Positions 1 through 64,000 of a stretch of DNA of 64,000 bases are shown in pieces. The position numbers and the translations under genes were made by a program. The DNA lies in assembly GCA_963402885.1 (NCBI GenBank), contig OY727097.1, positions 17,608,001 to 17,672,000 of the forward strand, in the 5' to 3' direction. Below the pieces are notes generated by a model that searched no databases, was not told the origin of the DNA, and was given only the letters and a program-made list of their open reading frames with translations. Within the stretch, counting starts at the first letter, position 1, and each line of letters opens with the position of its first letter. The DNA comes from Antedon bifida. Its lineage: Eukaryota > Echinodermata > Crinoidea > Comatulida > Antedonidae.

Positions 1-194
1 AAGATCTGACGAACGCATTCTCTGACATTCCTCATGTTATACTTCTCCGGACAAATTGTATCAATAATATGCAGCACGTTTAGAGAACCGCTGGTAGTAT
101 CTGGACAACGGAGAAGAGCCGCCACAACAAGTTCTTGAAATGATAGAGGCATCATCAATGTATCGGTGAGATCGGAGAACATCATGCAAGACAT
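1..194 (-). CDS. Protein gene copy 0, 5' exon part, cut by window edge
   Basis: This is the first exon of the 183-residue protein gene, with its ATG at 192-194. It holds about the first 64 codons before the window ends. It carries the common F6 and P31 residues. The remainder lies outside the window to the left. Confidence 0.6.
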   Translation of the reverse strand, partial: MSCMMFSDLTDTLMMPLSFQELVVAALLRCPDTTSGSLNVLHIIDTICPEKYNMRNVRECVRQI

Positions 195-356
195 ATTTAG
201 GTTACTCGTAGTTCGGATAATAGTCGAATGGTAGCTTTTCAGATAATTCAGTTGACTTTAATAGTTGAATGCCGTAAAAATCAAAGGCACACCATTTTAA
301 AAATGTCTTTGTTGGTTAGATATTAATGAAAGAACAAGAAAAACACAATAGAAACA

Positions 357-449
357 ATGGCTGCGTTGAGTAACGCGGGCGCAATCGCAACAATAAACAA
401 TTTTAAAACAATAGAAACGGTAAAGCAAAGAAAGCGGATGACACTTTAA
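357..449 (+). CDS. Candidate 30-residue small ORF, repeated in most units
   Basis: This + strand ORF starts with ATG in a favourable context (ACAATGG) and ends at TAA. The product begins MAALSNAGAIATINNF and ends in a basic stretch KQRKRMTL. Its first third is G+C-rich with CpGs, unlike the A+T-rich surroundings. It lies in the divergent region between the protein gene and U1. I do not recognise it. It could be a real small ORF, a first exon (a possible donor ACG|GTAAAG lies within it), a relic of a gene, or chance. The same ORF starts at 2188, 3162, 4993, 6824, 10202, 12032, 13820, 15636, 17466, 18902, 20733, 22563, 24000, 25831, 27661, 29492, 31305, 33135, 34571, 36402, 38233, 40063, 41499, 43312, 45143, 48502, 51862, 55222, 57053, 61960 and 63773. 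The six units with the 266-bp deletion lack its start. Confidence 0.25.
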   Translation: MAALSNAGAIATINNFKTIETVKQRKRMTL

Positions 450-602
450 TGATTTGTCGGTATGAAATTAAAACTTCCAATACTATTACAAACAACTAGC
501 ATTTAAATTTAGTTGATATGAAAATATGTTTGAGAATAGACTACAGTTACTGTAAGTTACAGAAGATTATATTACCATTTACATTATGACACTGTAACTG
601 AA

Positions 603-610
603 TATAAATA
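603..610 (+). promoter_or_regulatory. TATA-like element upstream of U1
   Basis: TATAAATA lies 76 to 69 bp before U1 nucleotide 1. This is farther than a normal TATA distance (about -30), and animal U1 genes are usually TATA-less and driven by a proximal sequence element. Its role is therefore doubtful. The 395-bp deletion in the U1-less units has its left breakpoint at this element. Confidence 0.25.
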
Positions 611-678
611 CCAGAATGACACTTGTACAACAATACCAAGCCAATATCTCAGCTAAGAACGTGGTATGGCGTTTAAGC

Positions 679-844
679 ATACTTACCTGGCACAGGAGCG
701 ACTTTGATCAGGAAGGAATGTCCTCCCAAGATGAGGCCTCGGCATTGCACACACGGCTGCGGTTGACCCTTGCGATTCCCCCAAACGTGGGGAACTCGGG
801 TGTATAATTTATGGTAGCGGGGGACTGCGTTCGCGCTAACCCCC
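679..844 (+). ncRNA. U1: U1 spliceosomal snRNA, copy 1 (reference copy)
   Basis: U1 is the RNA of the U1 snRNP, which base-pairs with 5' splice sites in the nucleus. The 5' end ATACTTACCTGGC (679-691) is the universal 5'-splice-site recognition sequence. Stem-loop I carries GATCAGGAAGG (nt 28-38), the U1-70K loop, with G where human and Drosophila have C. Stem-loop II shows the U1A-type site ATTGCAC (743-749). Stem-loop III is TTCCCC-CAAACG-TGGGGAA-like around 776-794. The Sm site is AATTTATGG (806-814). Stem-loop IV closes with GGGGG (819-823) and CCCCC (840-844) around GCG-TTCG-CGC. The length of 166 nt is close to human U1 (164). The exact 3' end could be 1-2 nt further. Confidence 0.95.
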
Positions 845-1203
845 AATTCGACATTAATATTAGATAGCCTATGCAGTTCACGATAATCGTTAGGTTAATT
901 AAGAACACTTGATATATAACTATTTATGGTTACATTATCTGTTAAGAAACTTTGTTGGTTTGTAACTATATTTATTTTTCCTTTACAACTGTTGGTATAG
1001 AATATTAACATGCATTGAACGCTTCATGATTATTTCGAAGAATAATATCAATTATAGGCTCAAACTCTAGATTAAACAACATAAAGTAGTCTATTATAGA
1101 ACTTATACTTATTTAAATACTTTTATTACTTTCTGTTAAACGATAATTATATTTCATTTACAATATGTATTAAATGCTATTTAATTATAGATATTTTATT
1201 TAT
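845..1203. other. A+T-rich convergent spacer
   Basis: This stretch separates the 3' end of U1 from the stop codon of the protein gene. Beyond the 3'-box-like element and the AATAAA signals at its right end I see no gene in it. It contains the 18-bp segment (CTTTCTGTTAAACGATAA, about 1130-1147) that is missing from the 1,813- and 1,547-bp unit classes, and the right breakpoint of the 395-bp U1-removing deletion near 1004. Confidence 0.6.
853..865 (+). terminator. 3'-box-like element after U1
   Basis: ATTAATATTAGAT begins about 9 nt after the end of U1. Its AATATTAGA matches 8 of 9 positions of the core AAARNNAGA of the snRNA 3' box, which directs 3'-end formation by the Integrator complex, and the distance is as expected. 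The element is repeated after each complete U1. Known consensus is from vertebrates, so this is an inference. Confidence 0.5.
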
Positions 1204-1204
1204 T
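1195..1204 (-). terminator. Tandem AATAAA poly(A) signals overlapping the stop codon
   Basis: On the - strand the protein gene ends ATG TAA ATAAATAAAA, giving two overlapping AATAAA hexamers, the first sharing a base with the stop codon. The 3' UTR would be very short. The same arrangement is present in every copy with an intact 3' exon. Confidence 0.55.
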
Positions 1205-2025
1205 TACATGTCATATTGTTCTTGTCGAAGAAGTTTGGCGATAGAAAACCTTTGACATTTTACACTCAATGATGAAGACGTAGTATGTACACCGTTTAAT
1301 TGTTCTGTTTCAGTTTGTAAGCAATGTTGTTTTTCGCCATTTCTATCGCTGCAATTCAAGTGGTTTATGGATTGGAGATCTAGCTCCATCGGTGCATTGC
1401 GTGATATCGTATACAGGTATGCCACCCACTCGTTGTAAGTGTTGGATGTTACGTGGTACTTCGTTCCATTCACTATAATGATATATGGCAGATAGTATTG
1501 CCAACCGTCTGTCAATCGATACCTATAACAAGAAAACAAACTTATTTATTAATAATGATGATCATGTAAATAAATAATAAGGATGATAATCAATGGTATT
1601 TCTGTTAAAATTACAAATGTAGGGAGCATTATTAAGTAAAATGACAAAGTACTGTAACCGAATAAGTACTGTAAGTAAGTTGCAGGCAGTGAGTTTTATT
1701 TAAGAAAAGGTTATTACAAATAATGCGTTACCTGTAAAGGCCAACATAGTTATTGCAATGAATAAGTTGGTTTAATAATGTAAATCACATACCTGTGTCT
1801 GTCAACCTTTTCGATATACGGTGATTCACTGAAGATCTGACGAACGCATTCTCTGACATTCCTCATGTTATACTTCTCCGGACAAATTGTATCAATAATA
1901 TGCAGCACGTTTAGAGAACCGCTGGTAGTATCTGTACAACGGAGAAGAGCCGCCACAACAAGTTCTTGAAATGATAGAGGCATCATCAATGTATCGGTGA
2001 GATCGGACAACATCATGCAAGACAT
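1204..2025 (-). CDS. Two-exon gene, 183-residue putative winged-helix protein (reference)
   Basis: I do not recognise this protein. Exon 1 codes from ATG at 2025 down to 1793, exon 2 from 1522 to the TAA at 1204; the intron 1523-1792 has GTATGT and TTTTCTTGTTATAG ends and splits an Arg codon (residue 78) after its second base. The joined product is 183 residues. Residues about 17-83 suggest a winged helix: helices LSFQELVVAALLRC, GSLNVLHIIDTI and NVRECVRQIFSESPY, then wing-like IEKVDRHRYRLTDGW, reminiscent of the forkhead recognition helix pattern. Residues 85-118 are aromatic-rich; 120-165 are polar and probably disordered. No signal peptide or membrane segment is evident. ATG is the first in-frame Met after an upstream stop. 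A DNA-binding role is inference. This copy has L6 and T31, unlike most. Confidence 0.6.
1523..1792 (-). other. Intron of the protein gene with internal acceptor/donor
   Basis: The donor is CACAG|GTATGT and the acceptor TTTTCTTGTTATAG|G. Within it, at 1731-1739, CCTTTACAG is followed directly by GTAACG, an acceptor abutting a donor 61 nt after the first donor. Two direct copies of AGTACTGTAA lie at 1648-1657 and 1665-1674. An ORF-like reading across the acceptor exists but starts with TTG and is intronic. The predicted splice pairing is from sequence only. Confidence 0.55.
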
Positions 2026-2339
2026 ATTTAGGTTACTCGTAGTTCGGATAATAGTCGAATGGTAGCTTTTCAGATAATTCAGTTGACTTTAATAGTTGAA
2101 TGCCGTAGAAATCAAAGGCACACCATTTTAAAAATGTCTTTGTTGGTTAGATATTAATGAAAGAACAAGAAAAACACAATAGAAACAATGGCTGCGTTGA
2201 GTAACGCGGGCGCAATCGCAACAATAAACAATTTTAAAACAATAGAAACGGTAAAGCAAAGAAAGCGGATGACACTTTAATGATTTGTCGGTATGAAATT
2301 AAAACTTCCAATACTATTACAAACAACTAGCATTTAAAT

Positions 2340-2999
2340 TTAGTTGATATGAAAATATGTTTGAGAATAGACTACAGTTATCGTATACAGGTATGCCACC
2401 CACTCGTTGTAAGTGTTGGATGTTACGTGGTACTTCGTTCCATTCACTATAATGATATATGGCAGATAGTATTGCCAACCGTCTGTCAATCGATACCTAT
2501 AACAAGAAAACAAACTTATTTATTAATAATGATGATCATGTAAATAAATAATAAGGATGATAATCAATGGTATTTCTGTTAAAATTACAAATGTAGGGAG
2601 CATTATTAAGTAAAATGACAAAGTACTGTAACCGAATAAGTACTGTAAGTAAGTTGCAGGCAGTGAGTTTTATTTAAGAAAAGGTTATTACAAATAATGC
2701 GTTACCTGTAAAGGCCAACATAGTTATTGCAATGAATAAGTTGGTTTAATAATGTAAATCACATACCTGTGTCTGTCAACCTTTTCGATATACGGAGATT
2801 CACTGAAGATCTGACGAACGCATTCTCTGACATTCCTCATGTTATACTTCTCCGGACAAATTGTATCAATAATATGCAGCACGTTTAGAGAACCGCTGGT
2901 AGTATCTGGACAACGGAGAAGAGCCGCCACAACAAGTTCTTGAAATGATAGAGGCATCATCAATGTATCGGTGAGATCGGAGAACATCATGCAAGACAT
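2340..2999 (-). pseudogene. Protein gene copy 2, truncated 3' exon
   Basis: This copy sits in the 974-bp unit. Exon 1 (ATG at 2999) and the intron are intact, but exon 2 stops at a deletion junction at 2380/2381 after about 38 codons. The reading frame then runs 14 or so codons into former U1-upstream DNA and meets TAA at 2340-2342. The last 67 or so residues, the stop codon and the AATAAA signals are lost. Confidence 0.65.
2371..2390. other. 857-bp deletion junction (974-bp unit)
   Basis: At 2380/2381 the U1-upstream sequence ACTACAGTTA joins directly to TCGTATACAG of exon 2. Comparison with the first unit shows that about 551-1407 is missing, that is the U1 promoter, U1, the spacer and the 3' half of exon 2. 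Microhomology at the junction is only about 2 nt (TA). Confidence 0.85.
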
Positions 3000-3483: not shown

Positions 3484-3649
3484 ATACTTACCTGGCACAG
3501 GAGCGACTTTGATCAGGAAGGAATGTCCTCCCAAGATGAGGCCTCGGCATTGCACACACGGCTGCGGTTGACCCTTGCGATTCCCCCAAACGTGGGGAAC
3601 TCGGGTGTATAATTTATGGTAGCGGGGGACTGCGTTCGCGCTAACCCCC
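3484..3649 (+). ncRNA. U1: U1 snRNA, copy 2
   Basis: Identical in sequence to the reference U1 as far as read by eye, including 5' end, Sm site and closing stem. Confidence 0.95.
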
Positions 3650-4008
3650 AATTCGACATTAATATTAGATAGCCTATGCAGTTCACGATAATCGTTAGGT
3701 TAATTAAGAACACTTGATATATAACTATTTATGGTTACATTATCTGTTAAGAAACTTTGTTGGTTTGTAACTATATTTATTTTTCCTTTACAACTGTTGG
3801 TATAGAATATTAACATGCATTGAACGCTTCATGATTATTTCGAAGAATAATATCAATTATAGGCTCAAACTCTAGATTAAACAACATAAAGTAGTCTATT
3901 ATAGAACTTATACTTATTTAAATACTTTTATTACTTTCTGTTAAACGATAATTATATTTCATTTACAATATGTATTAAATGCTATTTAATTATAGATATT
4001 TTATTTAT

Positions 4009-4830
4009 TTACATGTCATATTGTTCTTGTCGAAGAAGTTTGGCGATAGAAAACCTTTGACATTTTACACTCAATGATGAAGACGTAGTATGTACACCGT
4101 TTAATTGTTCTGTTTCAGTTTGTAAGCAATGTTGTTTTTCGCCATTTCTATCGCTGCAATTCAAGTGGTTTATGGATTGGAAATCTAGCTCCATCGGTGC
4201 ATTGCGTGATATCGTATACAGGTATGCCACCCACTCGTTGTAAGTGTTGGATGTTACGTGGTACTTCGTTCCATTCACTATAATGATATATGGCAGATAG
4301 TATTGCCAACCGTCTGTCAATCGATACCTATAACAAGAAAACAAACTTATTTATTAATAATGATGATCATGTAAATAAATAATAAGGATGATAATCAATG
4401 GTATTTCTGTTAAAATTACAAATGTAGGGAGCATTATTAAGTAAAATGACAAAGTACTGTAACCGAATAAGTACTGTAAGTAAGTTGCAGGCAGTGAGTT
4501 TTATTTAAGAAAAGGTTATTACAAATAATGCGTTACCTGTAAAGGCCAACATAGTTATTGCAATGAATAAGTTGGTTTAATAATGTAAATCACATACCTG
4601 TGTCTGTCAAACTTTTCGATATACGGTGATTCACTGAAGATCTGACGAACGCATTCTCTGACATTCCTCATGTTATACTTCTCCGGACAAATTGTATCAA
4701 TAATATGCAGCACGTTTAGAGAACCGCTGGTAGTATCTGTACAACGGAGAAGAGCCGCCACAACAAGTTCTTGAAATGATAGAGGCATCATCAATGTATC
4801 GGTGAGATCGGACAACATCATGCAAGACAT
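4009..4830 (-). CDS. Protein gene copy 3
   Basis: Complete two-exon copy. It differs from the majority by L6, T31, F74 (V in others; the only copy with it) and F127 (L in most copies). F74 lies in the wing-like part of the putative winged helix. Confidence 0.58.
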
Positions 4831-5314
4831 ATTTAGGTTACTCGTAGTTCGGATAATAGTCGAATGGTAGCTTTTCAGATAATTCAGTTGACTTTAATAG
4901 TTGAATGCCGTAGAAATCAAAGGCACACCATTTTAAAAATGTCTTTGTTGGTTAGATATTAATGAAAGAACAAGAAAAACACAATAGAAACAATGGCTGC
5001 GTTGAGTAACGCGGGCGCAATCGCAACAATAAACAATTTTAAAACAATAGAAACGGTAAAGCAAAGAAAGCGGATGACACTTTAATGATTTGTCGGTATG
5101 AAATTAAAACTTCCAATACTATTACAAACAACTAGCATTTAAATTTAGTTGATATGAAAATATGTTTGAGAATAGACTACAGTTACTGTAAGTTACAGAA
5201 GATTATATTACCATTTACATTATGACACTGTAACTGAATATAAATACCAGAATGACACTTGTACAACAATACCAAGCCAATATCTCAGCTAAGAACGTGG
5301 TATGGCGTTTAAGC

Positions 5315-7670: not shown

Positions 7671-8425
7671 TTACATGTCATATTGTTCTTGTCGAAGAAG
7701 TTTGGCGATAGAAAACCTTTGACATTTTACACTCAATGATGAAGACGTAGTATGTACACCGTTTAATTGTTCTGTTTCAGTTTGTAAGCAATGTTGTTTT
7801 TCGCCATTTCTATCGCTGCAATTCAAGTGGTTTATGGATTGGAAATCTAGCTCCATCGGTGCATTGCGTGATATCGTATACAGGTATGCCACCCACTCGT
7901 TGTAAGTGTTGGATGTTACGTGGTACTTCGTTCCATTCACTATAATGATATATGGCAGATAGTATTGCCAACCGTCTGTCAATCGATACCTATAACAAGA
8001 AAACAAACTTATTTATTAATAATGATGATCATGTAAATAAATAATAAGGATGATAATCAATGGTATTTCTGTTAAAATTACAAATGTAGGGAGCATTATT
8101 AAGTAAAATGACAAAGTACTGTAACCGAATAAGTACTGTAAGTAAGTTGCAGGCAGTGAGTTTTATTTAAGAAAAGGTTATTACAAATAATGCGTTACCT
8201 GTAAAGGCCAACATAGTTATTGCAATGAATAAGTTGGTTTAATAATGTAAATCACATACCTGTGTCTGTCAACCTTTTCGATATACGGAGATTCACTGAA
8301 GATCTGACGAACGCATTCTCTGACATTCCTCATGTTATACTTCTCCGGACAAATTGTATCAATAATATGCAGCACGTTTAGAGAACCGCTGGTAGTATCT
8401 GGACAACGGAGAAGAGCCGCCACAA
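7671..8425 (-). pseudogene. Protein gene copy 5, 5' end deleted
   Basis: Exon 2 (with F127), the intron and most of exon 1 remain, but the first 23 or so codons with the ATG are gone through the 266-bp deletion. The remaining frame opens only with a TTG in foreign upstream sequence, so a normal product is unlikely. Confidence 0.7.
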
Positions 8426-8435
8426 TAAACAATTT
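8415..8435. other. 266-bp deletion junction, type copy
   Basis: GCCGCCACAA joins TAAACAATTT. Compared with a full unit (deleted part 6595-6860) this removes the protein start codon, its 5' leader and the start of the + strand small ORF. Flanks share the microhomology ACAA. The same junction recurs near 46726, 50085, 53445, 58636 and 60183. Confidence 0.9.
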
Positions 8436-12353: not shown

Positions 12354-12494
12354 ATACTTACCTGGCACAGGAGCGACTTTGATCAGGAAGGAATGTCCTC
12401 CCAAGATGAGGCCTCGGCATTGCGATTCCCCCAAACGTGGGGAACTCGGGTGTATAATTTATGGTAGCGGGGGACTGCGTTCGCGCTAACCCCC
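12354..12494 (+). pseudogene. U1: U1 snRNA copy 7, stem-loop II deleted
   Basis: The 5' end, stem-loop I, stem-loop III, Sm site and stem-loop IV are intact, but 25 nt are missing after CCTCGGCATTGC. The loss takes the rest of the U1A-binding loop and the 3' side of stem-loop II. Breakpoints share the direct repeat TTGC. Such an RNA could still bind Sm proteins and U1-70K but should not bind U1A normally and cannot form the four-way junction properly. Confidence 0.9.
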
Positions 12495-12835
12495 AATTCG
12501 ACATTAATATTAGATAGCCTATGCAGTTCACGATAATCGTTAGGTTAATTAAGAACACTTGATATATAACTATTTATGGTTACATTATCTGTTAAGAAAC
12601 TTTGTTGGTTTGTAACTATATTTATTTTTCCTTTACAACTGTTGGTATAGAATATTAACATGCATTGAACGCTTCATGATTATTTCGAAGAATAATATCA
12701 ATTATAGGCTCAAACTCTAGATTAAACAACATAAAGTAGTCTATTATAGAACTTATACTTATTTAAATACTTTTATTATTATATTTCATTTACAATATGT
12801 ATTAAATGCTATTTAATTATAGATATTTTATTTAT

Positions 12836-17303: not shown

Positions 17304-17709
17304 ATTTAGGTTACTCGTAGTTCGGATAATAGTCGAATGGTAGCTTTTCAGATAATTCAGTTGACTTTAATAGTTGAATGCCGTAGAAATCAAAGGCACA
17401 CCATTTTAAAAATGTCTTTGTTGGTTAGATATTAATGAAAGAACAAGAAAAACACAATAGAAACAATGGCTGCGTTGAGTAACGCGGGCGCAATCGCAAC
17501 AATAAACAATTTTAAAACAATAGAAACGGTAAAGCAAAGAAAGCGGATGACACTTTAATGATTTGTCGGTATGAAATTAAAACTTCCAATACTATTACAA
17601 ACAACTAGCATTTAAATTTAGTTGATATGAAAATATGTTTGAGAATAGACTACAGTTACTGTAAGTTACAGAAGATTATATTACCATTTACATTATGACA
17701 CTGTAACTG

Positions 17710-17730
17710 AATATAAATATTAACATGCAT
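17710..17730. other. 395-bp deletion junction, U1 lost (first of four)
   Basis: AATATAAATA joins TTAACATGC at 17719/17720. Compared with unit 1, about 611-1005 is missing: the proximal U1 promoter, all of U1, the 3' box and part of the spacer. Flanks share the microhomology AATA. The same junction recurs at 22816, 33388 and 40316, always in a 1,436-bp unit. Confidence 0.92.
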
Positions 17731-17918
17731 TGAACGCTTCATGATTATTTCGAAGAATAATATCAATTATAGGCTCAAACTCTAGATTAAACAACATAAA
17801 GTAGTCTATTATAGAACTTATACTTATTTAAATACTTTTATTACTTTCTGTTAAACGATAATTATATTTCATTTACAATATGTATTAAATGCTATTTAAT
17901 TATAGATATTTTATTTAT

Positions 17919-22805: not shown

Positions 22806-22826
22806 GAATATAAATATTAACATGCA
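22806..22826. other. 395-bp deletion junction, U1 lost (second)
   Basis: Same junction as at 17719, here at 22816/22817; this 1,436-bp unit has no U1. Confidence 0.92.
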
Positions 22827-26318: not shown

Positions 26319-26698
26319 AATTCGACATTAATATTAGATAGCCTATGCAGTTCACGATAATCGTTAGGTTAATTAAGAACACTTGATATATAACTATTTA
26401 TGGTTACATTATCTGTTAAGAAACTTTGTTGGTTTGTAACTATATTTATTTTTCCTTTACAACTGTTGGTATAGAATATTAACATGCATTGAACGCTTCA
26501 TGATTATTTCGAAGAATAATATCAATTATAGGCTCAAACTCTAGATTAAACAACATAAAGTAGTCTATTATAGAACTTATACTTATTTAAATACTTTTAT
26601 TACTTTCTGTTAAACGATAATTATATTTCATTTACAATATGTATTAAATGCTATTTAATTATAGATATTTTATTTATTTACATGTCATATTGTTCTTG

Positions 26699-27498
26699 TC
26701 AAAGAAGTTTGGCGATAGAAAACCTTTGACATTTTACACTCAATGATGAAGACGTAGTATGTACACCGTTTAATTGTTCTGTTTCAGTTTGTAAGCAATG
26801 TTGTTTTTCGCCATTTCTATCGCTGCAATTCAAGTGGTTTATGGATTGGAGATCTAGCTCCATCGGTGCATTGCGTGATATCGTATACAGGTATGCCACC
26901 CACTCGTTGTAAGTGTTGGATGTTACGTGGTACTTCGTTCCATTCACTATAATGATATATGGCAGATAGTATTGCCAACCGTCTGTCAATCGATACCTAT
27001 AACAAGAAAACAAACTTATTTATTAATAATGATGATCATGTAAATAAATAATAAGGATGATAATCAATGGTATTTCTGTTAAAATTACAAATGTAGGGAG
27101 CATTATTAAGTAAAATGACAAAGTACTGTAACCGAATAAGTACTGTAAGTAAGTTGCAGGCAGTGAGTTTTATTTAAGAAAAGGTTATTACAAATAATGC
27201 GTTACCTGTAAAGGCCAACATAGTTATTGCAATGAATAAGTTGGTTAATAATGTAAATCACATACCTGTGTCTGTCAACCTTTTCGATATACGGTGATTC
27301 ACTGAAGATCTGACGAACGCATTCTCTGACATTCCTCATGTTATACTTCTCCGGACAAATTGTATCAATAATATGCAGCACGTTTAGAGAACCGCTGGTA
27401 GTATCTGGACAACGGAGAAGAGCCGCCACAACAAGTTCTTGAAATGATAGAGGCATCATCAATGTATCGGTGAGATCGGAGAACATCATGCAAGACAT
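26699..27498 (-). CDS. Protein gene copy 16, stop at residue 177
   Basis: Two-exon copy with the shortened intron. CGA to TGA at codon 177 (26701) removes the last seven residues (RQEQYDM). The putative winged helix is untouched. The same change occurs in copies 20 and 24. Confidence 0.55.
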
Positions 27499-29979: not shown

Positions 29980-30320
29980 AATTCGACATTAATATTAGAT
30001 AGCCTATGCAGTTCACGATAATCGTTAGGTTAATTAAGAACACTTGATATATAACTATTTATGGTTACATTATCTGTTAAGAAACTTTGTTGGTTTGTAA
30101 CTATATTTATTTTTCCTTTACAACTGTTGGTATAGAATATTAACATGCATTGAACGCTTCATGATTATTTCGAAGAATAATATCAATTATAGGCTCAAAC
30201 TCTAGATTAAACAACATAAAGTAGTCTATTATAGAACTTATACTTATTTAAATACTTTTATTATTATATTTCATTTACAATATGTATTAAATGCTATTTA
30301 ATTATAGATATTTTATTTAT

Positions 30321-31142
30321 TTACATGTCATATTGTTCTTGTCGAAGAAGTTTGGCGATAGAAAACCTTTGACATTTTACACTCAATGATGAAGACGTAG
30401 TATGTACACCGTTTAATTGTTCTGTTTCAGTTTGTAAGCAATGTTGTTTTTCGCCATTTCTATCGCTGCAATTCAAGTGGTTTATGGATTGGAGATCTAG
30501 CTCCATCGGTGCATTGCGTGATATCGTATACAGGTATGCCACCCACTCGTTGTAAGTGTTGGATGTTACGTGGTACTTCGTTCCATTCACTATAATGATA
30601 TATGGCAGATAGTATTGCCAACCGTCTGTCAATCGATACCTATAACAAGAAAACAAACTTATTTATTAATAATGATGATCATGTAAATAAATAATAAGGA
30701 TGATAATCAATGGTATTTCTGTTAAAATTACAAATGTAGGGAGCATTATTAAGTAAAATGACAAAGTACTGTAACCGAATAAGTACTGTAAGTAAGTTGC
30801 AGGCAGTGAGTTTTATTTAAGAAAAGGTTATTACAAATAATGCGTTACCTGTAAAGGCCAACATAGTTATTGCAATGAATAAGTTGGTTTAATAATGTAA
30901 ATCACATACCTGTGTCTGTCAACCTTTTCGATATACGGAGATTCACTGAAGATCTGACGAACGCATTCTCTGACATTCCTCATGTTATACTTCTCCGGAC
31001 AAATTGTATCAATAATATGCAGCACGTTTAGAGAACCGCTGGTAGTATCTGGACAACGGAGAAGAGCCGCCACAACAAGTTCTTGAAATGATAGAGGCAT
31101 CATCAATGTATCGGTGAGATCGGAGAACATCATGCAAGACAT
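30321..31142 (-). CDS. Protein gene copy 18
   Basis: Complete two-exon copy with the majority protein sequence. Confidence 0.6.
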
Positions 31143-31626
31143 ATTTAGGTTACTCGTAGTTCGGATAATAGTCGAATGGTAGCTTTTCAGATAATTCAGT
31201 TGACTTTAATAGTTGAATGCCGTAAAAATCAAAGGCACACCATTTTAAAAATGTCTTTGTTGGTTAGATATTAATGAAAGAACAAGAAAAACACAATAGA
31301 AACAATGGCTGCGTTGAGTAACGCGGGCGCAATCGCAACAATAAACAATTTTAAAACAATAGAAACGGTAAAGCAAAGAAAGCGGATGACACTTTAATGA
31401 TTTGTCGGTATGAAATTAAAACTTCCAATACTATTACAAACAACTAGCATTTAAATTTAGTTGATATGAAAATATGTTTGAGAATAGACTACAGTTACTG
31501 TAAGTTACAGAAGATTATATTACCATTTACATTATGACACTGTAACTGAATATAAATACCAGAATGACACTTGTACAACAATACCAAGCCAATATCTCAG
31601 CTAAGAACGTGGTATGGCGTTTAAGC

Positions 31627-31792
31627 ATACTTACCTGGCACAGGAGCGACTTTGATCAGGAAGGAATGTCCTCCCAAGATGAGGCCTCGGCATTGCACAC
31701 ACGGCTGCGGTTGACCCTTGCGATTCCCCCAAACGTGGGGAACTCGGGTGTATAATTTATGGTAGCGGGGGACTGCGTTCGCGCTAACCCCC
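31627..31792 (+). ncRNA. U1: U1 snRNA, copy 16
   Basis: Standard sequence. Confidence 0.95.
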
Positions 31793-32151
31793 AATTCGAC
31801 ATTAATATTAGATAGCCTATGCAGTTCACGATAATCGTTAGGTTAATTAAGAACACTTGATATATAACTATTTATGGTTACATTATCTGTTAAGAAACTT
31901 TGTTGGTTTGTAACTATATTTATTTTTCCTTTACAACTGTTGGTATAGAATATTAACATGCATTGAACGCTTCATGATTATTTCGAAGAATAATATCAAT
32001 TATAGGCTCAAACTCTAGATTAAACAACATAAAGTAGTCTATTATAGAACTTATACTTATTTAAATACTTTTATTACTTTCTGTTAAACGATAATTATAT
32101 TTCATTTACAATATGTATTAAATGCTATTTAATTATAGATATTTTATTTAT

Positions 32152-32972
32152 TTACATGTCATATTGTTCTTGTCGAAGAAGTTTGGCGATAGAAAACCTT
32201 TGACATTTTACACTCAATGATGAAGACGTAGTATGTACACCGTTTAATTGTTCTGTTTCAGTTTGTAAGCAATGTTGTTTTTCGCCATTTCTATCGCTGC
32301 AATTCAAGTGGTTTATGGATTGGAGATCTAGCTCCATCGGTGCATTGCGTGATATCGTATACAGGTATGCCACCCACTCGTTGTAAGTGTTGGATGTTAC
32401 GTGGTACTTCGTTCCATTCACTATAATGATATATGGCAGATAGTATTGCCAACCGTCTGTCAATCGATACCTATAACAAGAAAACAAACTTATTTATTAA
32501 TAATGATGATCATGTAAATAAATAATAAGGATGATAATCAATGGTATTTCTGTTAAAATTACAAATGTAGGGAGCATTATTAAGTAAAATGACAAAGTAC
32601 TGTAACCGAATAAGTACTGTAAGTAAGTTGCAGGCAGTGAGTTTTATTTAAGAAAAGGTTATTACAAATAATGCGTTACCTGTAAAGGCCAACATAGTTA
32701 TTGCAATGAATAAGTTGGTTAATAATGTAAATCACATACCTGTGTCTGTCAACCTTTTCGATATACGGTGATTCACTGAAGATCTGACGAACGCATTCTC
32801 TGACATTCCTCATGTTATACTTCTCCGGACAAATTGTATCAATAATATGCAGCACGTTTAGAGAACCGCTGGTAGTATCTGGACAACGGAGAAGAGCCGC
32901 CACAACAAGTTCTTGAAATGATAGAGGCATCATCAATGTATCGGTGAGATCGGAGAACATCATGCAAGACAT
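32152..32972 (-). CDS. Protein gene copy 19, intron variant
   Basis: Complete two-exon copy with majority protein and the shortened intron. Confidence 0.6.
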
Positions 32973-33377
32973 ATTTAGGTTACTCGTAGTTCGGATAATA
33001 GTCGAATGGTAGCTTTTCAGATAATTCAGTTGACTTTAATAGTTGAATGCCGTAGAAATCAAAGGCACACCATTTTAAAAATGTCTTTGTTGGTTAGATA
33101 TTAATGAAAGAACAAGAAAAACACAATAGAAACAATGGCTGCGTTGAGTAACGCGGGCGCAATCGCAACAATAAACAATTTTAAAACAATAGAAACGGTA
33201 AAGCAAAGAAAGCGGATGACACTTTAATGATTTGTCGGTATGAAATTAAAACTTCCAATACTATTACAAACAACTAGCATTTAAATTTAGTTGATATGAA
33301 AATATGTTTGAGAATAGACTACAGTTACTGTAAGTTACAGAAGATTATATTACCATTTACATTATGACACTGTAACT

Positions 33378-33398
33378 GAATATAAATATTAACATGCA
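33378..33398. other. 395-bp deletion junction, U1 lost (third)
   Basis: Same junction as at 17719, here at 33388/33389. Confidence 0.92.
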
Positions 33399-33608
33399 TT
33401 GAACGCTTCATGATTATTTCGAAGAATAATATCAATTATAGGCTCAAACTCTAGATTAAACAACATAAAGTAGTCTATTATAGAACTTATACTTATTTAA
33501 ATACTTTTATTACTTTCTGTTAAACGATAATTATATTTCATTTACAATATGTATTAAATGCTATTTAATTATAGATATTTTATTTATTTACATGTCATAT
33601 TGTTCTTG

Positions 33609-34408
33609 TCAAAGAAGTTTGGCGATAGAAAACCTTTGACATTTTACACTCAATGATGAAGACGTAGTATGTACACCGTTTAATTGTTCTGTTTCAGTTT
33701 GTAAGCAATGTTGTTTTTCGCCATTTCTATCGCTGCAATTCAAGTGGTTTATGGATTGGAGATCTAGCTCCATCGGTGCATTGCGTGATATCGTATACAG
33801 GTATGCCACCCACTCGTTGTAAGTGTTGGATGTTACGTGGTACTTCGTTCCATTCACTATAATGATATATGGCAGATAGTATTGCCAACCGTCTGTCAAT
33901 CGATACCTATAACAAGAAAACAAACTTATTTATTAATAATGATGATCATGTAAATAAATAATAAGGATGATAATCAATGGTATTTCTGTTAAAATTACAA
34001 ATGTAGGGAGCATTATTAAGTAAAATGACAAAGTACTGTAACCGAATAAGTACTGTAAGTAAGTTGCAGGCAGTGAGTTTTATTTAAGAAAAGGTTATTA
34101 CAAATAATGCGTTACCTGTAAAGGCCAACATAGTTATTGCAATGAATAAGTTGGTTAATAATGTAAATCACATACCTGTGTCTGTCAACCTTTTCGATAT
34201 ACGGTGATTCACTGAAGATCTGACGAACGCATTCTCTGACATTCCTCATGTTATACTTCTCCGGACAAATTGTATCAATAATATGCAGCACGTTTAGAGA
34301 ACCGCTGGTAGTATCTGGACAACGGAGAAGAGCCGCCACAACAAGTTCTTGAAATGATAGAGGCATCATCAATGTATCGGTGAGATCGGAGAACATCATG
34401 CAAGACAT
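33609..34408 (-). CDS. Protein gene copy 20, stop at residue 177
   Basis: Two-exon copy with the shortened intron and the CGA to TGA change, in a U1-less unit. Confidence 0.55.
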
Positions 34409-34892
34409 ATTTAGGTTACTCGTAGTTCGGATAATAGTCGAATGGTAGCTTTTCAGATAATTCAGTTGACTTTAATAGTTGAATGCCGTAGAAATCAAAG
34501 GCACACCATTTTAAAAATGTCTTTGTTGGTTAGATATTAATGAAAGAACAAGAAAAACACAATAGAAACAATGGCTGCGTTGAGTAACGCGGGCGCAATC
34601 GCAACAATAAACAATTTTAAAACAATAGAAACGGTAAAGCAAAGAAAGCGGATGACACTTTAATGATTTGTCGGTATGAAATTAAAACTTCCAATACTAT
34701 TACAAACAACTAGCATTTAAATTTAGTTGATATGAAAATATGTTTGAGAATAGACTACAGTTACTGTAAGTTACAGAAGATTATATTACCATTTACATTA
34801 TGACACTGTAACTGAATATAAATACCAGAATGACACTTGTACAACAATACCAAGCCAATATCTCAGCTAAGAACGTGGTATGGCGTTTAAGC

Positions 34893-35058
34893 ATACTTAC
34901 CTGGCACAGGAGCGACTTTGATCAGGAAGGAATGTCCTTCCAAGATGAGGCCTCGGCATTGCACACACGGCTGCGGTTGACCCTTGCGATTCCCCCAAAC
35001 GTGGGGAACTCGGGTGTATAATTTATGGTAGCGGGGGACTGCGTTCGCGCTAACCCCC
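34893..35058 (+). ncRNA. U1: U1 snRNA, copy 17 with C47T
   Basis: Complete copy with C47T; higher-order partner of the copy at 27983 (6,910 bp away). Confidence 0.94.
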
Positions 35059-35417
35059 AATTCGACATTAATATTAGATAGCCTATGCAGTTCACGATAA
35101 TCGTTAGGTTAATTAAGAACACTTGATATATAACTATTTATGGTTACATTATCTGTTAAGAAACTTTGTTGGTTTGTAACTATATTTATTTTTCCTTTAC
35201 AACTTTTGGTATAGAATATTAACATGCATTGAACGCTTCATGATTATTTCGAAGAATAATATCAATTATAGGCTCAAACTCTAGATTAAACAACATAAAG
35301 TAGTCTATTATAGAACTTATACTTATTTAAATACTTTTATTACTTTCTGTTAAACGATAATTATATTTCATTTACAATATGTATTAAATGCTATTTAATT
35401 ATAGATATTTTATTTAT

Positions 35418-36889: not shown

Positions 36890-37248
36890 AATTCGACATT
36901 AATATTAGATAGCCTATGCAGTTCACGATAATCGTTAGGTTAATTAAGAACACTTGATATATAACTATTTATGGTTACATTATCTGTTAAGAAACTTTGT
37001 TGGTTTGTAACTATATTTATTTTTCCTTTACAACTGTTGGTATAGAATATTAACATGCATTGAACGCTTCATGATTATTTCGAAGAATAATATCAATTAT
37101 AGGCTCAAACTCTAGATTAAACAACATAAAGTAGTCTATTATAGAACTTATACTTATTTAAATACTTTTATTACTTTCTGTTAAACGATAATTATATTTC
37201 ATTTACAATATGTATTAAATGCTATTTAATTATAGATATTTTATTTAT

Positions 37249-38070
37249 TTACATGTCATATTGTTCTTGTCGAAGAAGTTTGGCGATAGAAAACCTTTGA
37301 CATTTTACACTCAATGATGAAGACGTAGTATGTACACCGTTTAATTGTTCTGTTTCAGTTTGTAAGCAATGTTGTTTTTCGCCATTTCTATCGCTGCAAT
37401 TCAAGTGGTTTATGGATTGGAGATCTAGCTCCATCGGTGCATTGCGTGATATCGTATACAGGTATGCCACCCACTCGTTGTAAGTGTTGGATGTTACGTG
37501 GTACTTCGTTCCATTCACTATAATGATATATGGCAGATAGTATTGCCAACCGTCTGTCAATCGATACCTATAACAAGAAAACAAACTTATTTATTAATAA
37601 TGATGATCATGTAAATAAATAATAAGGATGATAATCAATGGTATTTCTGTTAAAATTACAAATGTAGGGAGCATTATTAAGTAAAATGACAAAGTACTGT
37701 AACCGAATAAGTACTGTAAGTAAGTTGCAGGCAGTGAGTTTTATTTAAGAAAAGGTTATTACAAATAATGCGTTACCTGTAAAGGCCAACATAGTTATTG
37801 CAATGAATAAGTTGGTTTAATAATGTAAATCACATACCTGTGTCTGTCAACCTTTTCGATATACGGAGATTCACTGAAGATCTGACGAACGCATTCTCTG
37901 ACATTCCTCATGTTATACTTCTCCGGACAAATTGTATCAATAATATGCAGCACGTTTAGAGAACCGCTGGTAGTATCTGGACAACGGAGAAGAGCCGCCA
38001 CAACAAGTTCTTGAAATGATAGAGGCATCATCAATGTATCGGTGAGATCGGAGAACATCATGCAAGACAT
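37249..38070 (-). CDS. Protein gene copy 22
   Basis: Complete two-exon copy with the majority protein sequence. Confidence 0.6.
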
Positions 38071-38554
38071 ATTTAGGTTACTCGTAGTTCGGATAATAGT
38101 CGAATGGTAGCTTTTCAGATAATTCAGTTGACTTTAATAGTTGAATGCCGTAAAAATCAAAGGCACACCATTTTAAAAATGTCTTTGTTGGTTAGATATT
38201 AATGAAAGAACAAGAAAAACACAATAGAAACAATGGCTGCGTTGAGTAACGCGGGCGCAATCGCAACAATAAACAATTTTAAAACAATAGAAACGGTAAA
38301 GCAAAGAAAGCGGATGACACTTTAATGATTTGTCGGTATGAAATTAAAACTTCCAATACTATTACAAACAACTAGCATTTAAATTTAGTTGATATGAAAA
38401 TATGTTTGAGAATAGACTACAGTTACTGTAAGTTACAGAAGATTATATTACCATTTACATTATGACACTGTAACTGAATATAAATACCAGAATGACACTT
38501 GTACAACAATACCAAGCCAATATCTCAGCTAAGAACGTGGTATGGCGTTTAAGC

Positions 38555-38720
38555 ATACTTACCTGGCACAGGAGCGACTTTGATCAGGAAGGAATGTCCT
38601 CCCAAGATGAGGCCTCGGCATTGCACACACGGCTGCGGTTGACCCTTGCGATTCCCCCAAACGTGGGGAACTCGGGTGTATAATTTATGGTAGCGGGGGA
38701 CTGCGTTCGCGCTAACCCCC
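38555..38720 (+). ncRNA. U1: U1 snRNA, copy 19
   Basis: Standard sequence. Confidence 0.95.
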
Positions 38721-39079
38721 AATTCGACATTAATATTAGATAGCCTATGCAGTTCACGATAATCGTTAGGTTAATTAAGAACACTTGATATATAACTATT
38801 TATGGTTACATTATCTGTTAAGAAACTTTGTTGGTTTGTAACTATATTTATTTTTCCTTTACAACTGTTGGTATAGAATATTAACATGCATTGAACGCTT
38901 CATGATTATTTCGAAGAATAATATCAATTATAGGCTCAAACTCTAGATTAAACAACATAAAGTAGTCTATTATAGAACTTATACTTATTTAAATACTTTT
39001 ATTACTTTCTGTTAAACGATAATTATATTTCATTTACAATATGTATTAAATGCTATTTAATTATAGATATTTTATTTAT

Positions 39080-39900
39080 TTACATGTCATATTGTTCTTG
39101 TCGAAGAAGTTTGGCGATAGAAAACCTTTGACATTTTACACTCAATGATGAAGACGTAGTATGTACACCGTTTAATTGTTCTGTTTCAGTTTGTAAGCAA
39201 TGTTGTTTTTCGCCATTTCTATCGCTGCAATTCAAGTGGTTTATGGATTGGAGATCTAGCTCCATCGGTGCATTGCGTGATATCGTATACAGGTATGCCA
39301 CCCACTCGTTGTAAGTGTTGGATGTTACGTGGTACTTCGTTCCATTCACTATAATGATATATGGCAGATAGTATTGCCAACCGTCTGTCAATCGATACCT
39401 ATAACAAGAAAACAAACTTATTTATTAATAATGATGATCATGTAAATAAATAATAAGGATGATAATCAATGGTATTTCTGTTAAAATTACAAATGTAGGG
39501 AGCATTATTAAGTAAAATGACAAAGTACTGTAACCGAATAAGTACTGTAAGTAAGTTGCAGGCAGTGAGTTTTATTTAAGAAAAGGTTATTACAAATAAT
39601 GCGTTACCTGTAAAGGCCAACATAGTTATTGCAATGAATAAGTTGGTTAATAATGTAAATCACATACCTGTGTCTGTCAACCTTTTCGATATACGGTGAT
39701 TCACTGAAGATCTGACGAACGCATTCTCTGACATTCCTCATGTTATACTTCTCCGGACAAATTGTATCAATAATATGCAGCACGTTTAGAGAACCGCTGG
39801 TAGTATCTGGACAACGGAGAAGAGCCGCCACAACAAGTTCTTGAAATGATAGAGGCATCATCAATGTATCGGTGAGATCGGAGAACATCATGCAAGACAT
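39080..39900 (-). CDS. Protein gene copy 23, intron variant
   Basis: Complete two-exon copy with majority protein and the shortened intron. Confidence 0.6.
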
Positions 39901-40305
39901 ATTTAGGTTACTCGTAGTTCGGATAATAGTCGAATGGTAGCTTTTCAGATAATTCAGTTGACTTTAATAGTTGAATGCCGTAGAAATCAAAGGCACACCA
40001 TTTTAAAAATGTCTTTGTTGGTTAGATATTAATGAAAGAACAAGAAAAACACAATAGAAACAATGGCTGCGTTGAGTAACGCGGGCGCAATCGCAACAAT
40101 AAACAATTTTAAAACAATAGAAACGGTAAAGCAAAGAAAGCGGATGACACTTTAATGATTTGTCGGTATGAAATTAAAACTTCCAATACTATTACAAACA
40201 ACTAGCATTTAAATTTAGTTGATATGAAAATATGTTTGAGAATAGACTACAGTTACTGTAAGTTACAGAAGATTATATTACCATTTACATTATGACACTG
40301 TAACT

Positions 40306-40326
40306 GAATATAAATATTAACATGCA
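40306..40326. other. 395-bp deletion junction, U1 lost (fourth)
   Basis: Same junction as at 17719, here at 40316/40317. Confidence 0.92.
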
Positions 40327-40536
40327 TTGAACGCTTCATGATTATTTCGAAGAATAATATCAATTATAGGCTCAAACTCTAGATTAAACAACATAAAGTA
40401 GTCTATTATAGAACTTATACTTATTTAAATACTTTTATTACTTTCTGTTAAACGATAATTATATTTCATTTACAATATGTATTAAATGCTATTTAATTAT
40501 AGATATTTTATTTATTTACATGTCATATTGTTCTTG

Positions 40537-41336
40537 TCAAAGAAGTTTGGCGATAGAAAACCTTTGACATTTTACACTCAATGATGAAGACGTAGTATGT
40601 ACACCGTTTAATTGTTCTGTTTCAGTTTGTAAGCAATGTTGTTTTTCGCCATTTCTATCGCTGCAATTCAAGTGGTTTATGGATTGGAGATCTAGCTCCA
40701 TCGGTGCATTGCGTGATATCGTATACAGGTATGCCACCCACTCGTTGTAAGTGTTGGATGTTACGTGGTACTTCGTTCCATTCACTATAATGATATATGG
40801 CAGATAGTATTGCCAACCGTCTGTCAATCGATACCTATAACAAGAAAACAAACTTATTTATTAATAATGATGATCATGTAAATAAATAATAAGGATGATA
40901 ATCAATGGTATTTCTGTTAAAATTACAAATGTAGGGAGCATTATTAAGTAAAATGACAAAGTACTGTAACCGAATAAGTACTGTAAGTAAGTTGCAGGCA
41001 GTGAGTTTTATTTAAGAAAAGGTTATTACAAATAATGCGTTACCTGTAAAGGCCAACATAGTTATTGCAATGAATAAGTTGGTTAATAATGTAAATCACA
41101 TACCTGTGTCTGTCAACCTTTTCGATATACGGTGATTCACTGAAGATCTGACGAACGCATTCTCTGACATTCCTCATGTTATACTTCTCCGGACAAATTG
41201 TATCAATAATATGCAGCACGTTTAGAGAACCGCTGGTAGTATCTGGACAACGGAGAAGAGCCGCCACAACAAGTTCTTGAAATGATAGAGGCATCATCAA
41301 TGTATCGGTGAGATCGGAGAACATCATGCAAGACAT
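40537..41336 (-). CDS. Protein gene copy 24, stop at residue 177
   Basis: Two-exon copy with the shortened intron and the CGA to TGA change, in a U1-less unit, as in copy 20. Confidence 0.55.
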
Positions 41337-41820
41337 ATTTAGGTTACTCGTAGTTCGGATAATAGTCGAATGGTAGCTTTTCAGATAATTCAGTTGACTT
41401 TAATAGTTGAATGCCGTAGAAATCAAAGGCACACCATTTTAAAAATGTCTTTGTTGGTTAGATATTAATGAAAGAACAAGAAAAACACAATAGAAACAAT
41501 GGCTGCGTTGAGTAACGCGGGCGCAATCGCAACAATAAACAATTTTAAAACAATAGAAACGGTAAAGCAAAGAAAGCGGATGACACTTTAATGATTTGTC
41601 GGTATGAAATTAAAACTTCCAATACTATTACAAACAACTAGCATTTAAATTTAGTTGATATGAAAATATGTTTGAGAATAGACTACAGTTACTGTAAGTT
41701 ACAGAAGATTATATTACCATTTACATTATGACACTGTAACTGAATATAAATACCAGAATGACACTTGTACAACAATACCAAGCCAATATCTCAGCTAAGA
41801 ACGTGGTATGGCGTTTAAGC

Positions 41821-41986
41821 ATACTTACCTGGCACAGGAGCGACTTTGATCAGGAAGGAATGTCCTTCCAAGATGAGGCCTCGGCATTGCACACACGGCT
41901 GCGGTTGACCCTTGCGATTCCCCCAAACGTGGGGAACTCGGGTGTATAATTTATGGTAGCGGGGGACTGCGTTCGCGCTAACCCCC
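41821..41986 (+). ncRNA. U1: U1 snRNA, copy 20 with C47T
   Basis: Complete copy with C47T, 6,928 bp from the copy at 34893. Confidence 0.94.
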
Positions 41987-42327
41987 AATTCGACATTAAT
42001 ATTAGATAGCCTATGCAGTTCACGATAATCGTTAGGTTAATTAAGAACACTTGATATATAACTATTTATGGTTACATTATCTGTTAAGAAACTTTGTTGG
42101 TTTGTAACTATATTTATTTTTCCTTTACAACTTTTGGTATAGAATATTAACATGCATTGAACGCTTCATGATTATTTCGAAGAATAATATCAATTATAGG
42201 CTCAAACTCTAGATTAAACAACATAAAGTAGTCTATTATAGAACTTATACTTATTTAAATACTTTTATTATTATATTTCATTTACAATATGTATTAAATG
42301 CTATTTAATTATAGATATTTTATTTAT

Positions 42328-60634: not shown

Positions 60635-60975
60635 AATTCGACATTAATATTAGATAGCCTATGCAGTTCACGATAATCGTTAGGTTAATTAAGAACACTT
60701 GATATATAACTATTTATGGTTACATTATCTGTTAAGAAACTTTGTTGGTTTGTAACTATATTTATTTTTCCTTTACAACTGTTGGTATAGAATATTAACA
60801 TGCATTGAACGCTTCATGATTATTTCGAAGAATAATATCAATTATAGGCTCAAACTCTAGATTAAACAACATAAAGTAGTCTATTATAGAACTTATACTT
60901 ATTTAAATACTTTTATTATTATATTTCATTTACAATATGTATTAAATGCTATTTAATTATAGATATTTTATTTAT

Positions 60976-61797
60976 TTACATGTCATATTGTTCTTGTCGA
61001 AGAAGTTTGGCGATAGAAAACCTTTGACATTTTACACTCAATGATGAAGACGTAGTATGTACACCGTTTAATTGTTCTGTTTCAGTTTGTAAGCAATGTT
61101 GTTTTTCGCCATTTCTATCGCTGCAATTCAAGTGGTTTATGGATTGGAGATCTAGCTCCATCGGTGCATTGCGTGATATCGTATACAGGTATGCCACCCA
61201 CTCGTTGTAAGTGTTGGATGTTACGTGGTACTTCGTTCCATTCACTATAATGATATATGGCAGATAGTATTGCCAACCGTCTGTCAATCGATACCTATAA
61301 CAAGAAAACAAACTTATTTATTAATAATGATGATCATGTAAATAAATAATAAGGATGATAATCAATGGTATTTCTGTTAAAATTACAAATGTAGGGAGCA
61401 TTATTAAGTAAAATGACAAAGTACTGTAACCGAATAAGTACTGTAAGTAAGTTGCAGGCAGTGAGTTTTATTTAAGAAAAGGTTATTACAAATAATGCGT
61501 TACCTGTAAAGGCCAACATAGTTATTGCAATGAATAAGTTGGTTTAATAATGTAAATCACATACCTGTGTCTGTCAACCTTTTCGATATACGGAGATTCA
61601 CTGAAGATCTGACGAACGCATTCTCTGACATTCCTCATGTTATACTTCTCCGGACAAATTGTATCAATAATATGCAGCACGTTTAGAGAACCGCTGGTAG
61701 TATCTGGACAACGGAGAAGAGCCGCCACAACAAGTTCTTGAAATGATAGAGGCATCATCAATGTATCGGTGAGATCGGAGAACATCATGCAAGACAT
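60976..61797 (-). CDS. Protein gene copy 36
   Basis: Complete two-exon copy with the majority protein sequence. Confidence 0.6.
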
Positions 61798-62281
61798 ATT
61801 TAGGTTACTCGTAGTTCGGATAATAGTCGAATGGTAGCTTTTCAGATAATTCAGTTGACTTTAATAGTTGAATGCCGTAGAAATCAAAGGCACACCATTT
61901 TAAAAATGTCTTTGTTGGTTAGATATTAATGAAAGAACAAGAAAAACACAATAGAAACAATGGCTGCGTTGAGTAACGCGGGCGCAATCGCAACAATAAA
62001 CAATTTTAAAACAATAGAAACGGTAAAGCAAAGAAAGCGGATGACACTTTAATGATTTGTCGGTATGAAATTAAAACTTCCAATACTATTACAAACAACT
62101 AGCATTTAAATTTAGTTGATATGAAAATATGTTTGAGAATAGACTACAGTTACTGTAAGTTACAGAAGATTATATTACCATTTACATTATGACACTGTAA
62201 CTGAATATAAATACCAGAATGACACTTGTACAACAATACCAAGCCAATATCTCAGCTAAGAACGTGGTATGGCGTTTAAGC

Positions 62282-62447
62282 ATACTTACCTGGCACAGGA
62301 GCGACTTTGATCAGGAAGGAATGTCCTCCCAAGATGAGGCCTCGGCATTGCACACACGGCTGCGGTTGACCCTTGCGATTCCCCCAAACGTGGGGAACTC
62401 GGGTGTATAATTTATGGTAGCGGGGGACTGCGTTCGCGCTAACCCCC
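62282..62447 (+). ncRNA. U1: U1 snRNA, copy 32
   Basis: Standard sequence. The following spacer has a unique C to G change at 62762. Confidence 0.95.
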
Positions 62448-62788
62448 AATTCGACATTAATATTAGATAGCCTATGCAGTTCACGATAATCGTTAGGTTA
62501 ATTAAGAACACTTGATATATAACTATTTATGGTTACATTATCTGTTAAGAAACTTTGTTGGTTTGTAACTATATTTATTTTTCCTTTACAACTGTTGGTA
62601 TAGAATATTAACATGCATTGAACGCTTCATGATTATTTCGAAGAATAATATCAATTATAGGCTCAAACTCTAGATTAAACAACATAAAGTAGTCTATTAT
62701 AGAACTTATACTTATTTAAATACTTTTATTATTATATTTCATTTACAATATGTATTAAATGGTATTTAATTATAGATATTTTATTTAT

Positions 62789-63610
62789 TTACATGTCATA
62801 TTGTTCTTGTCGAAGAAGTTTGGCGATAGAAAACCTTTGACATTTTACACTCAATGATGAAGACGTAGTATGTACACCGTTTAATTGTTCTGTTTCAGTT
62901 TGTAAGCAATGTTGTTTTTCGCCATTTCTATCGCTGCAATTCAAGTGGTTTATGGATTGGAGATCTAGCTCCATCGGTGCATTGCGTGATATCGTATACA
63001 GGTATGCCACCCACTCGTTGTAAGTGTTGGATGTTACGTGGTACTTCGTTCCATTCACTATAATGATATATGGCAGATAGTATTGCCAACCGTCTGTCAA
63101 TCGATACCTATAACAAGAAAACAAACTTATTTATTAATAATGATGATCATGTAAATAAATAATAAGGATGATAATCAATGGTATTTCTGTTAAAATTACA
63201 AATGTAGGGAGCATTATTAAGTAAAATGACAAAGTACTGTAACCGAATAAGTACTGTAAGTAAGTTGCAGGCAGTGAGTTTTATTTAAGAAAAGGTTATT
63301 ACAAATAATGCGTTACCTGTAAAGGCCAACATAGTTATTGCAATGAATAAGTTGGTTTAATAATGTAAATCACATACCTGTGTCTGTCAACCTTTTCGAT
63401 ATACGGAGATTCACTGAAGATCTGACGAACGCATTCTCTGACATTCCTCATGTTATACTTCTCCGGACAAATTGTATCAATAATATGCAGCACGTTTAGA
63501 GAACCGCTGGTAGTATCTGGACAACGGAGAAGAGCCGCCACAACAAGTTCTTGAAATGATAGAGGCATCATCAATGTATCGGTGAGATCGGAGAACATCA
63601 TGCAAGACAT
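62789..63610 (-). CDS. Protein gene copy 37
   Basis: Complete two-exon copy with the majority protein sequence. Confidence 0.6.
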
Positions 63611-64000
63611 ATTTAGGTTACTCGTAGTTCGGATAATAGTCGAATGGTAGCTTTTCAGATAATTCAGTTGACTTTAATAGTTGAATGCCGTAGAAATCAA
63701 AGGCACACCATTTTAAAAATGTCTTTGTTGGTTAGATATTAATGAAAGAACAAGAAAAACACAATAGAAACAATGGCTGCGTTGAGTAACGCGGGCGCAA
63801 TCGCAACAATAAACAATTTTAAAACAATAGAAACGGTAAAGCAAAGAAAGCGGATGACACTTTAATGATTTGTCGGTATGAAATTAAAACTTCCAATACT
63901 ATTACAAACAACTAGCATTTAAATTTAGTTGATATGAAAATATGTTTGAGAATAGACTACAGTTACTGTAAGTTACAGAAGATTATATTACCATTTACAT
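63611..64000. promoter_or_regulatory. Divergent region, cut by right window edge
   Basis: This is the start of another divergent intergenic region with the small ORF at 63773-63865. The sequence ends before U1; by the standard spacing the next U1 would begin about 95 bp after nucleotide 63610+390, just outside the window. Confidence 0.6.

What the first reader, a model, noticed from the sequence alone, without database searches (positions are those of the whole stretch)
1..64000. U1 snRNA genes co-amplified with an unrecognised spliced protein gene
Each standard unit couples a complete U1 gene with a convergent, two-exon gene for a 183-residue protein. Tandem snRNA arrays are known in animals, but here a protein-coding frame is carried along in more than 30 copies and most copies stay open across both exons with matching splice sites. 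The protein may have a role tied to the array (expression, chromatin or maintenance) or may be a passenger. The sequence shows the linkage; any functional link is inference.
Basis: partly seen in the sequence, partly recalled or inferred. Interest (0 to 1): 0.75.

Follow-up and report, generated by a model that had tools for sequence, protein, structure and literature searches.

The report
U1 RNA array carrying orphan gene
A stretch of eukaryote-type DNA repeats a small splicing-RNA gene about thirty times, and nearly every repeat also carries a small two-part protein gene of no recognised family that was probably copied along with it.

Summary
The 64-kb window is a tandem array with 32 U1 snRNA genes (RF00003, all + strand) and 37 intron-bearing copies of a minus-strand two-exon gene, plus one piece cut by the window start. 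Introns run GTATGT...ATAG in 37 of 37. Both exons are complete in 30 of 37; 27 of these 30 give the full 183-residue protein, 3 stop at codon 177. Six copies lack the start of exon 1, one the end of exon 2; five gene copies have no U1. None of 600 simulated units gave so long a two-exon frame. So a spliced gene rides in a U1 array.

The wider reading is weaker. Copies are homogenised, so their openness is not independent evidence of selection: coding variants are 5 missense, 1 nonsense, 3 silent, and the coding part is not less variable than spacers and intron (low power). No relative was found, but no eukaryote genomes could be searched. A forkhead lead failed its control. Best reading: a passenger gene co-amplified with U1, a new variant of known mixed snRNA arrays such as the Hydractinia histone/U1/U2 repeat. 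A functional tie to the array is not shown.

The parts
1..64000 (.). Tandem array filling the whole window; U1-to-U1 spacings 1830/1831 bp (11 of 31), 1812/1813 (7), 1547 (5), 3266/3267 (4: a U1 unit plus a 1436-bp repeat without U1), and one each of 1565, 1788, 1816, 2805
679..845 (+). U1 snRNA gene (one of 32), 167 bp, full model length, Sm-like AATTTATGG
   Evidence: 128.9 bits, gathering 69.5; alignment of an identical copy; the Sm label is recalled
846..1203 (.). Linker between U1 3' end and the stop codon of the convergent gene, 358 bp; 15 of 32 full copies lack 18 bp
1204..1522 (-). Coding part of exon 2 (stop codon TAA at the low end; AATAAA overlapping and just after it on the minus strand)
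1523..1792 (-). Intron, 270 bp, CAG|GTATGT...TTTGTTTTCTTGTTATAG|GTATC in this copy; GTATGT/ATAG ends in 37 of 37 copies
1793..2025 (-). Coding part of exon 1 (ATG at the high end; in-frame stop upstream)
4831..5314 (.). 484-bp spacer between the divergent start codon and the next U1; the 130 bp before U1 are identical in 30 of 31 full-length U1 copies
3484..5314 (.). One standard 1831-bp unit (U1 start to next U1 start)
12354..12495 (+). U1 copy with 25-bp internal deletion
17304..17918 (.). Stretch holding the junction of a repeat without U1 (U1 and 68 bp before it deleted, with part of the linker); same junction type at 22809, 33381 and 40309
   Evidence: junction letters of this one
7671..8428 (-). 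Gene copy without the first 64 bp of exon 1 and adjoining spacer (266-bp deletion); same at 45972, 49331, 52691, 57882, 59429
2379..2999 (-). Gene copy in the 974-bp repeat: no U1, end of exon 2 missing
26678..27498 (-). Gene copy with codon 177 changed to a stop; same at 33588-34408 and 40516-41336

Best explanation
This is a eukaryotic U1 snRNA tandem array whose founding 1.83-kb segment happened to contain a neighbouring small spliced mRNA gene. Unequal exchange and conversion amplified and homogenised both genes together. U1 dosage most likely keeps the array; the protein gene is mainly a passenger, probably still expressed from the intact copies through its own promoter in the 484-bp spacer that it shares with the next U1. 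Shown: linkage, gene structure, near-identity, block duplications, separate loss of each gene in some repeats. Inferred: expression, passenger status, selection on U1 dosage.
For: 32 of 37 gene copies have a U1 at 340 or 358 bp. Gene model: 183 aa over two exons against 0 of 600 simulated units; exons 42.5 and 39.2% G+C against 26.7% in the intron and 22.9 and 32.2% in the linkers, measured on one copy of each; T-rich acceptor and AATAAA at the stop. Exact repeats up to 5080 bp at an offset of 6928 bp point to multi-unit exchange. No constraint visible among the 30 complete copies: 5 missense, 1 nonsense, 3 silent (silent expected 346 of 1647; p=0.41), coding variant density 9/552 against 11/1112 in linkers and intron (p=0.34). 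A start-less form of the gene occupies six repeats and a U1-less form four.
Against: The frame is still open in 27 of 30 complete copies, and no small indel lies in the coding part of complete copies against 4 small indel sites outside it (p=0.31), so constraint is not excluded. Power is low: 9 coding variants. No transcript data; AATAAA is common by chance in A+T-rich DNA.
Confidence: 0.6

Rival explanations
1. The protein gene is itself selected for high dosage, and the array is a two-product amplification in which both U1 and the protein are wanted (as in histone/snRNA repeats).
For: 27 of 37 copies intact; four 1436-bp repeats keep both exons of the gene without U1 (one of them, 33588, and 40516 carry the early stop); Hydractinia has a repeat with five histone genes, U1 and U2.
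Against: No constraint seen among variants, with low power; a form without the start codon occupies six repeats.
Confidence: 0.22
2. The protein acts on the array or on U1 genes (transcription, chromatin or copy-number control).
For: Regular linkage and a 484-bp spacer shared by the divergent gene and U1; a low-confidence all-helical model of exon 1.
Against: No DNA- or RNA-binding family match; forkhead not supported; no fold match.
Confidence: 0.05
3. The frame is a decaying pseudogene with no product; recent homogenisation keeps it looking intact.
For: Variants look neutral; 10 of 37 copies are truncated or stop early.
Against: Intron ends, AATAAA and frame are intact in the common form; the commonest protein is found in 21 of 30 complete copies.
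Confidence: 0.1
4. The two-exon model is wrong: two unrelated chance frames.
For: Each stop-free run alone is within the chance range.
Against: Joint model beyond all 600 simulations, splice motifs, base-composition steps at exon borders.
Confidence: 0.03

Closest known systems
Hydractinia echinata canonical histone repeat with U1, U2, 5S rRNA and Arg-tRNA (PMC5011920; section 18 and search passages seen)
   Same: U1 in one tandem unit with protein-coding genes
   Different: [quoted passage not shown] Here: 1831-bp unit, one intron-bearing gene with no histone match and with AATAAA at its stop, 37 copies in the window
5S rDNA-snRNA linked repeats: with U1 in a crustacean, with U1, U2 and U5 in a fish, with U1 and U2 in a coral (passages of PMC8167085); with U1 in razor shells (title in the reference list of PMC5011920 only)
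   Same: U1 co-repeated with another gene
   Different: The partner there is 5S rRNA; none was found here
Plain U1 tandem repeats of sea urchins and Xenopus (recalled)
   Same: Short U1 units of 1-2 kb in tandem, as recalled
   Different: No protein gene in the unit, as recalled; not checked here
Drosophila histone and Stellate arrays (passages of PMC12400953)
   Same: Homogenised tandem protein-gene arrays, some units broken by insertions and deletions
   Different: No snRNA gene in the unit in the passages seen

Membership tests
U1 snRNA (RF00003) | Covariance-model match above gathering score over the whole model | tested here: met
   32 of 32 matches reach it; 128.9 bits in 23, lowest 103 in the copy with the 25-bp deletion
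U1 snRNA (RF00003) | 5' end complementary to 5' splice sites | tested here: met
   ATACTTACCTG; complementary to CAG|GTATGT of the array's own intron over -3 to +6 except at +4 (one copy)
U1 snRNA (RF00003) | Transcribed and assembled in snRNPs | not testable with these tools
   No RNA data
Histone-snRNA mixed repeat | Core or linker histone genes in the unit | tested here: not met
   No Pfam histone or PDB histone match for the one protein gene; linker histone H5 pairwise p=0.05 over 17 residues only
5S-U1 linked repeat | 5S rRNA gene in the unit | tested here: not met
   Rfam scan of all 64 kb at gathering scores gives U1 only; one unit at E up to 1 likewise
Forkhead winged helix | Match to the family profile | tested here: not met
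   No Pfam forkhead match with the limit at E 10, though the tool's filters drop most weak ones; own six-sequence profile 1.2 bits, reached by 185 of 2000 shuffles. Pairwise against FOXA2 alone p=0.0135
Forkhead winged helix | Winged-helix fold | tested here: inconclusive
   Exon 1 model of one variant copy, pLDDT 52.8, helices 19-29, 38-52, 57-67; Foldseek best E 5.2, none of the 8 hits is named as a winged helix

The most novel reading that the evidence does not exclude
The orphan protein is encoded in the U1 array because it serves it: a repeat-encoded nuclear factor, made from the spacer shared with U1, that regulates U1 transcription or the size of the array.
Probability: 0.05. Interest if true: 0.85.

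Novelty: new variant of a known kind. Interest (0 to 1): 0.38.

Why it matters
If confirmed, it extends snRNA-array linkages from 5S rRNA and histones to an intron-bearing gene of no recognised family. It would offer a natural case for asking how a passenger mRNA gene fares when concerted evolution acts on a selected RNA gene beside it, and whether a protein can be tied to its own snRNA array.

Tried and rejected
Forkhead or linker-histone identity. I suspected a forkhead by eye (recalled pattern). Pairwise comparison of residues 11-95 with FOXA2 gave p=0.0135 against 2000 shuffles, a target chosen after the fact; a six-sequence forkhead profile gave 1.2 bits, reached by 185 of 2000 shuffles (1648 shuffles were reported with a score at all), and its best domain score of 0.1 by 161. 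Rejected as evidence.

Fold. Exon 1 (residues 1-79 of copy 4009-4830, which differs from the commonest protein by F6L, P31T, V74F and, in exon 2, L127F) gave pLDDT 52.8; exon 2 of the same copy gave 37.0. Foldseek of the exon 1 model against PDB: 8 hits, best E 5.2. The exon 2 model was not searched, nor was the viral structure library. Searches also used exons of that variant copy; searches used the commonest protein.

Relatives. None by peptide patterns plus tblastn in viral contigs (1 stretch matched a pattern, none confirmed) and genome contigs (24 stretches, none confirmed); no exact match of U1 patterns in viral contigs or genome contigs; none for the DNA unit in plasmids or, in near mode only, E. 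coli genomes; none for the protein in phages. The source organism was not identified; no genome is held for the window.

Literature. Nine searches (the last found no paper). The lists were capped (for example 20 of 52, 20 of 191, 15 of 102 papers shown). Among the papers listed I saw no title or printed abstract start that describes a non-histone protein gene inside a U1 repeat. Most subscription papers are not held.

Selection. Tests use the 30 complete gene copies and full-length linkers and introns; variants seen only in truncated copies, the U1 variants and the large deletions were left out of the counts. Power is low (9 coding variants).

Full report
Array. Rfam finds 32 U1 genes, all on the + strand, and no other RNA family at gathering scores. 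ARAGORN found no tRNA. The tandem-repeat tool found nothing because its longest period is 500; TRF with a 2000-bp limit describes the window as successive arrays with periods near 974, 1436, 1547, 1813 and 1831. Of 31 U1-to-U1 spacings, 11 are 1830/1831 bp, 7 are 1812/1813, 5 are 1547, 4 are 3266/3267, and one each is 1565, 1788, 1816 and 2805.

Gene. On the minus strand the standard unit has exon 1 (1793-2025), a 270-bp intron (1523-1792) and exon 2 (1204-1522). All 37 introns have GTATGT and ATAG ends. In the copy read out, the donor is CAG|GTATGT and the acceptor has a T-rich tract, and AATAAA overlaps and follows the stop codon. Exons are 42.5 and 39.2% G+C, the intron 26.7%, linkers 22.9 and 32.2%, measured on one copy of each. 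The null model for two-exon frames gave 0 of 300 at order 1 and 0 of 300 at order 2 reaching 183 residues. Single stop-free runs alone are not unusual.

State of copies. 37 copies: 30 complete, of which 27 encode 183 residues and 3 stop at codon 177; 6 lack the start of exon 1; 1 lacks the end of exon 2. The 30 complete copies hold 9 distinct coding sequences. The six start-less copies share one junction, and the four 1436-bp repeats without U1 share another, so each looks like a single deletion that then spread. Exact repeats reach 5080 bp (30263 and 37191, offset 6928). This is what unequal exchange of multi-unit blocks would leave.

Selection. Among the 30 complete copies there are 9 coding variants: 5 missense, 1 nonsense, 3 silent. 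The neutral expectation for silent changes is 346 of 1647; p=0.41. Variant density is 9 in 552 coding against 11 in 1112 linker and intron bases (p=0.34); small indel sites 0 against 4 (p=0.31). Variants of truncated copies, of U1 and the large deletions are not in these counts. The data neither show constraint nor exclude it. Openness of the copies mostly reflects homogenisation.

Orientation. The gene is convergent with the U1 of its own unit and divergent from the next U1, with 484 bp between start codon and U1 in the standard form. The 130 bp before U1 are identical in 30 of 31 full-length copies. A shared bidirectional promoter is possible but not shown.

Protein. No family in Pfam, NCBIfam or PHROGs and no PDB sequence matched convincingly (best E-value of each search 0.037 to 0.16, and bit scores far under the curated cut-offs where these exist). 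Structure models were poor and the fold search of the exon 1 model found nothing. A forkhead resemblance (pairwise p=0.0135) did not survive a profile test. The protein is an orphan within what I could search, which excludes eukaryote genomes.

Known context. U1 is known in tandem units with 5S rRNA (passages of PMC8167085) and, in Hydractinia echinata, in a 5998-bp histone repeat with U2, 5S rRNA and a tRNA (PMC5011920 section 18; passages). That paper calls linkage of histone clusters with other elements rare. In ten species of Lepidoptera and a caddisfly outgroup, U1 numbered 2 to 31 copies per haploid genome by qPCR (passage of PMC8190105). I saw no U1 repeat with an intron-bearing, non-histone gene among the papers listed by my nine searches; the lists were capped and cover open-licence papers only.

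Verdict. The functional reading is open and I think unlikely. I file it as a new variant of mixed snRNA arrays.

Noticed in passing
window 30263-35342 and 37191-42270: Exact 5080-bp direct repeat (offset 6928), larger than two units: multi-unit block duplication.
   Followed up: partly
window 19224, 24322, 27983, 34893, 41821, 48824, 55544 (position 47 of U1): Seven U1 copies carry C47T, two of them also G78T, each followed by G146T in the next linker (G146T also occurs once without C47T, at the linker from 10691); a second U1 haplotype in the array.
   Followed up: partly
window 706-716 (U1 first stem-loop): The loop reads GATCAGGAAGG, where I recall GATCACGAAGG in most animals (the U1-70K binding loop); the Rfam consensus shows GAUCAaGAAG.
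   Followed up: no
window 5180-5189 and 5227-5236: Inverted pair CAGTTACTGT / ACTGTAACTG 79-135 bp before U1; possible promoter elements or chance.
   Followed up: no
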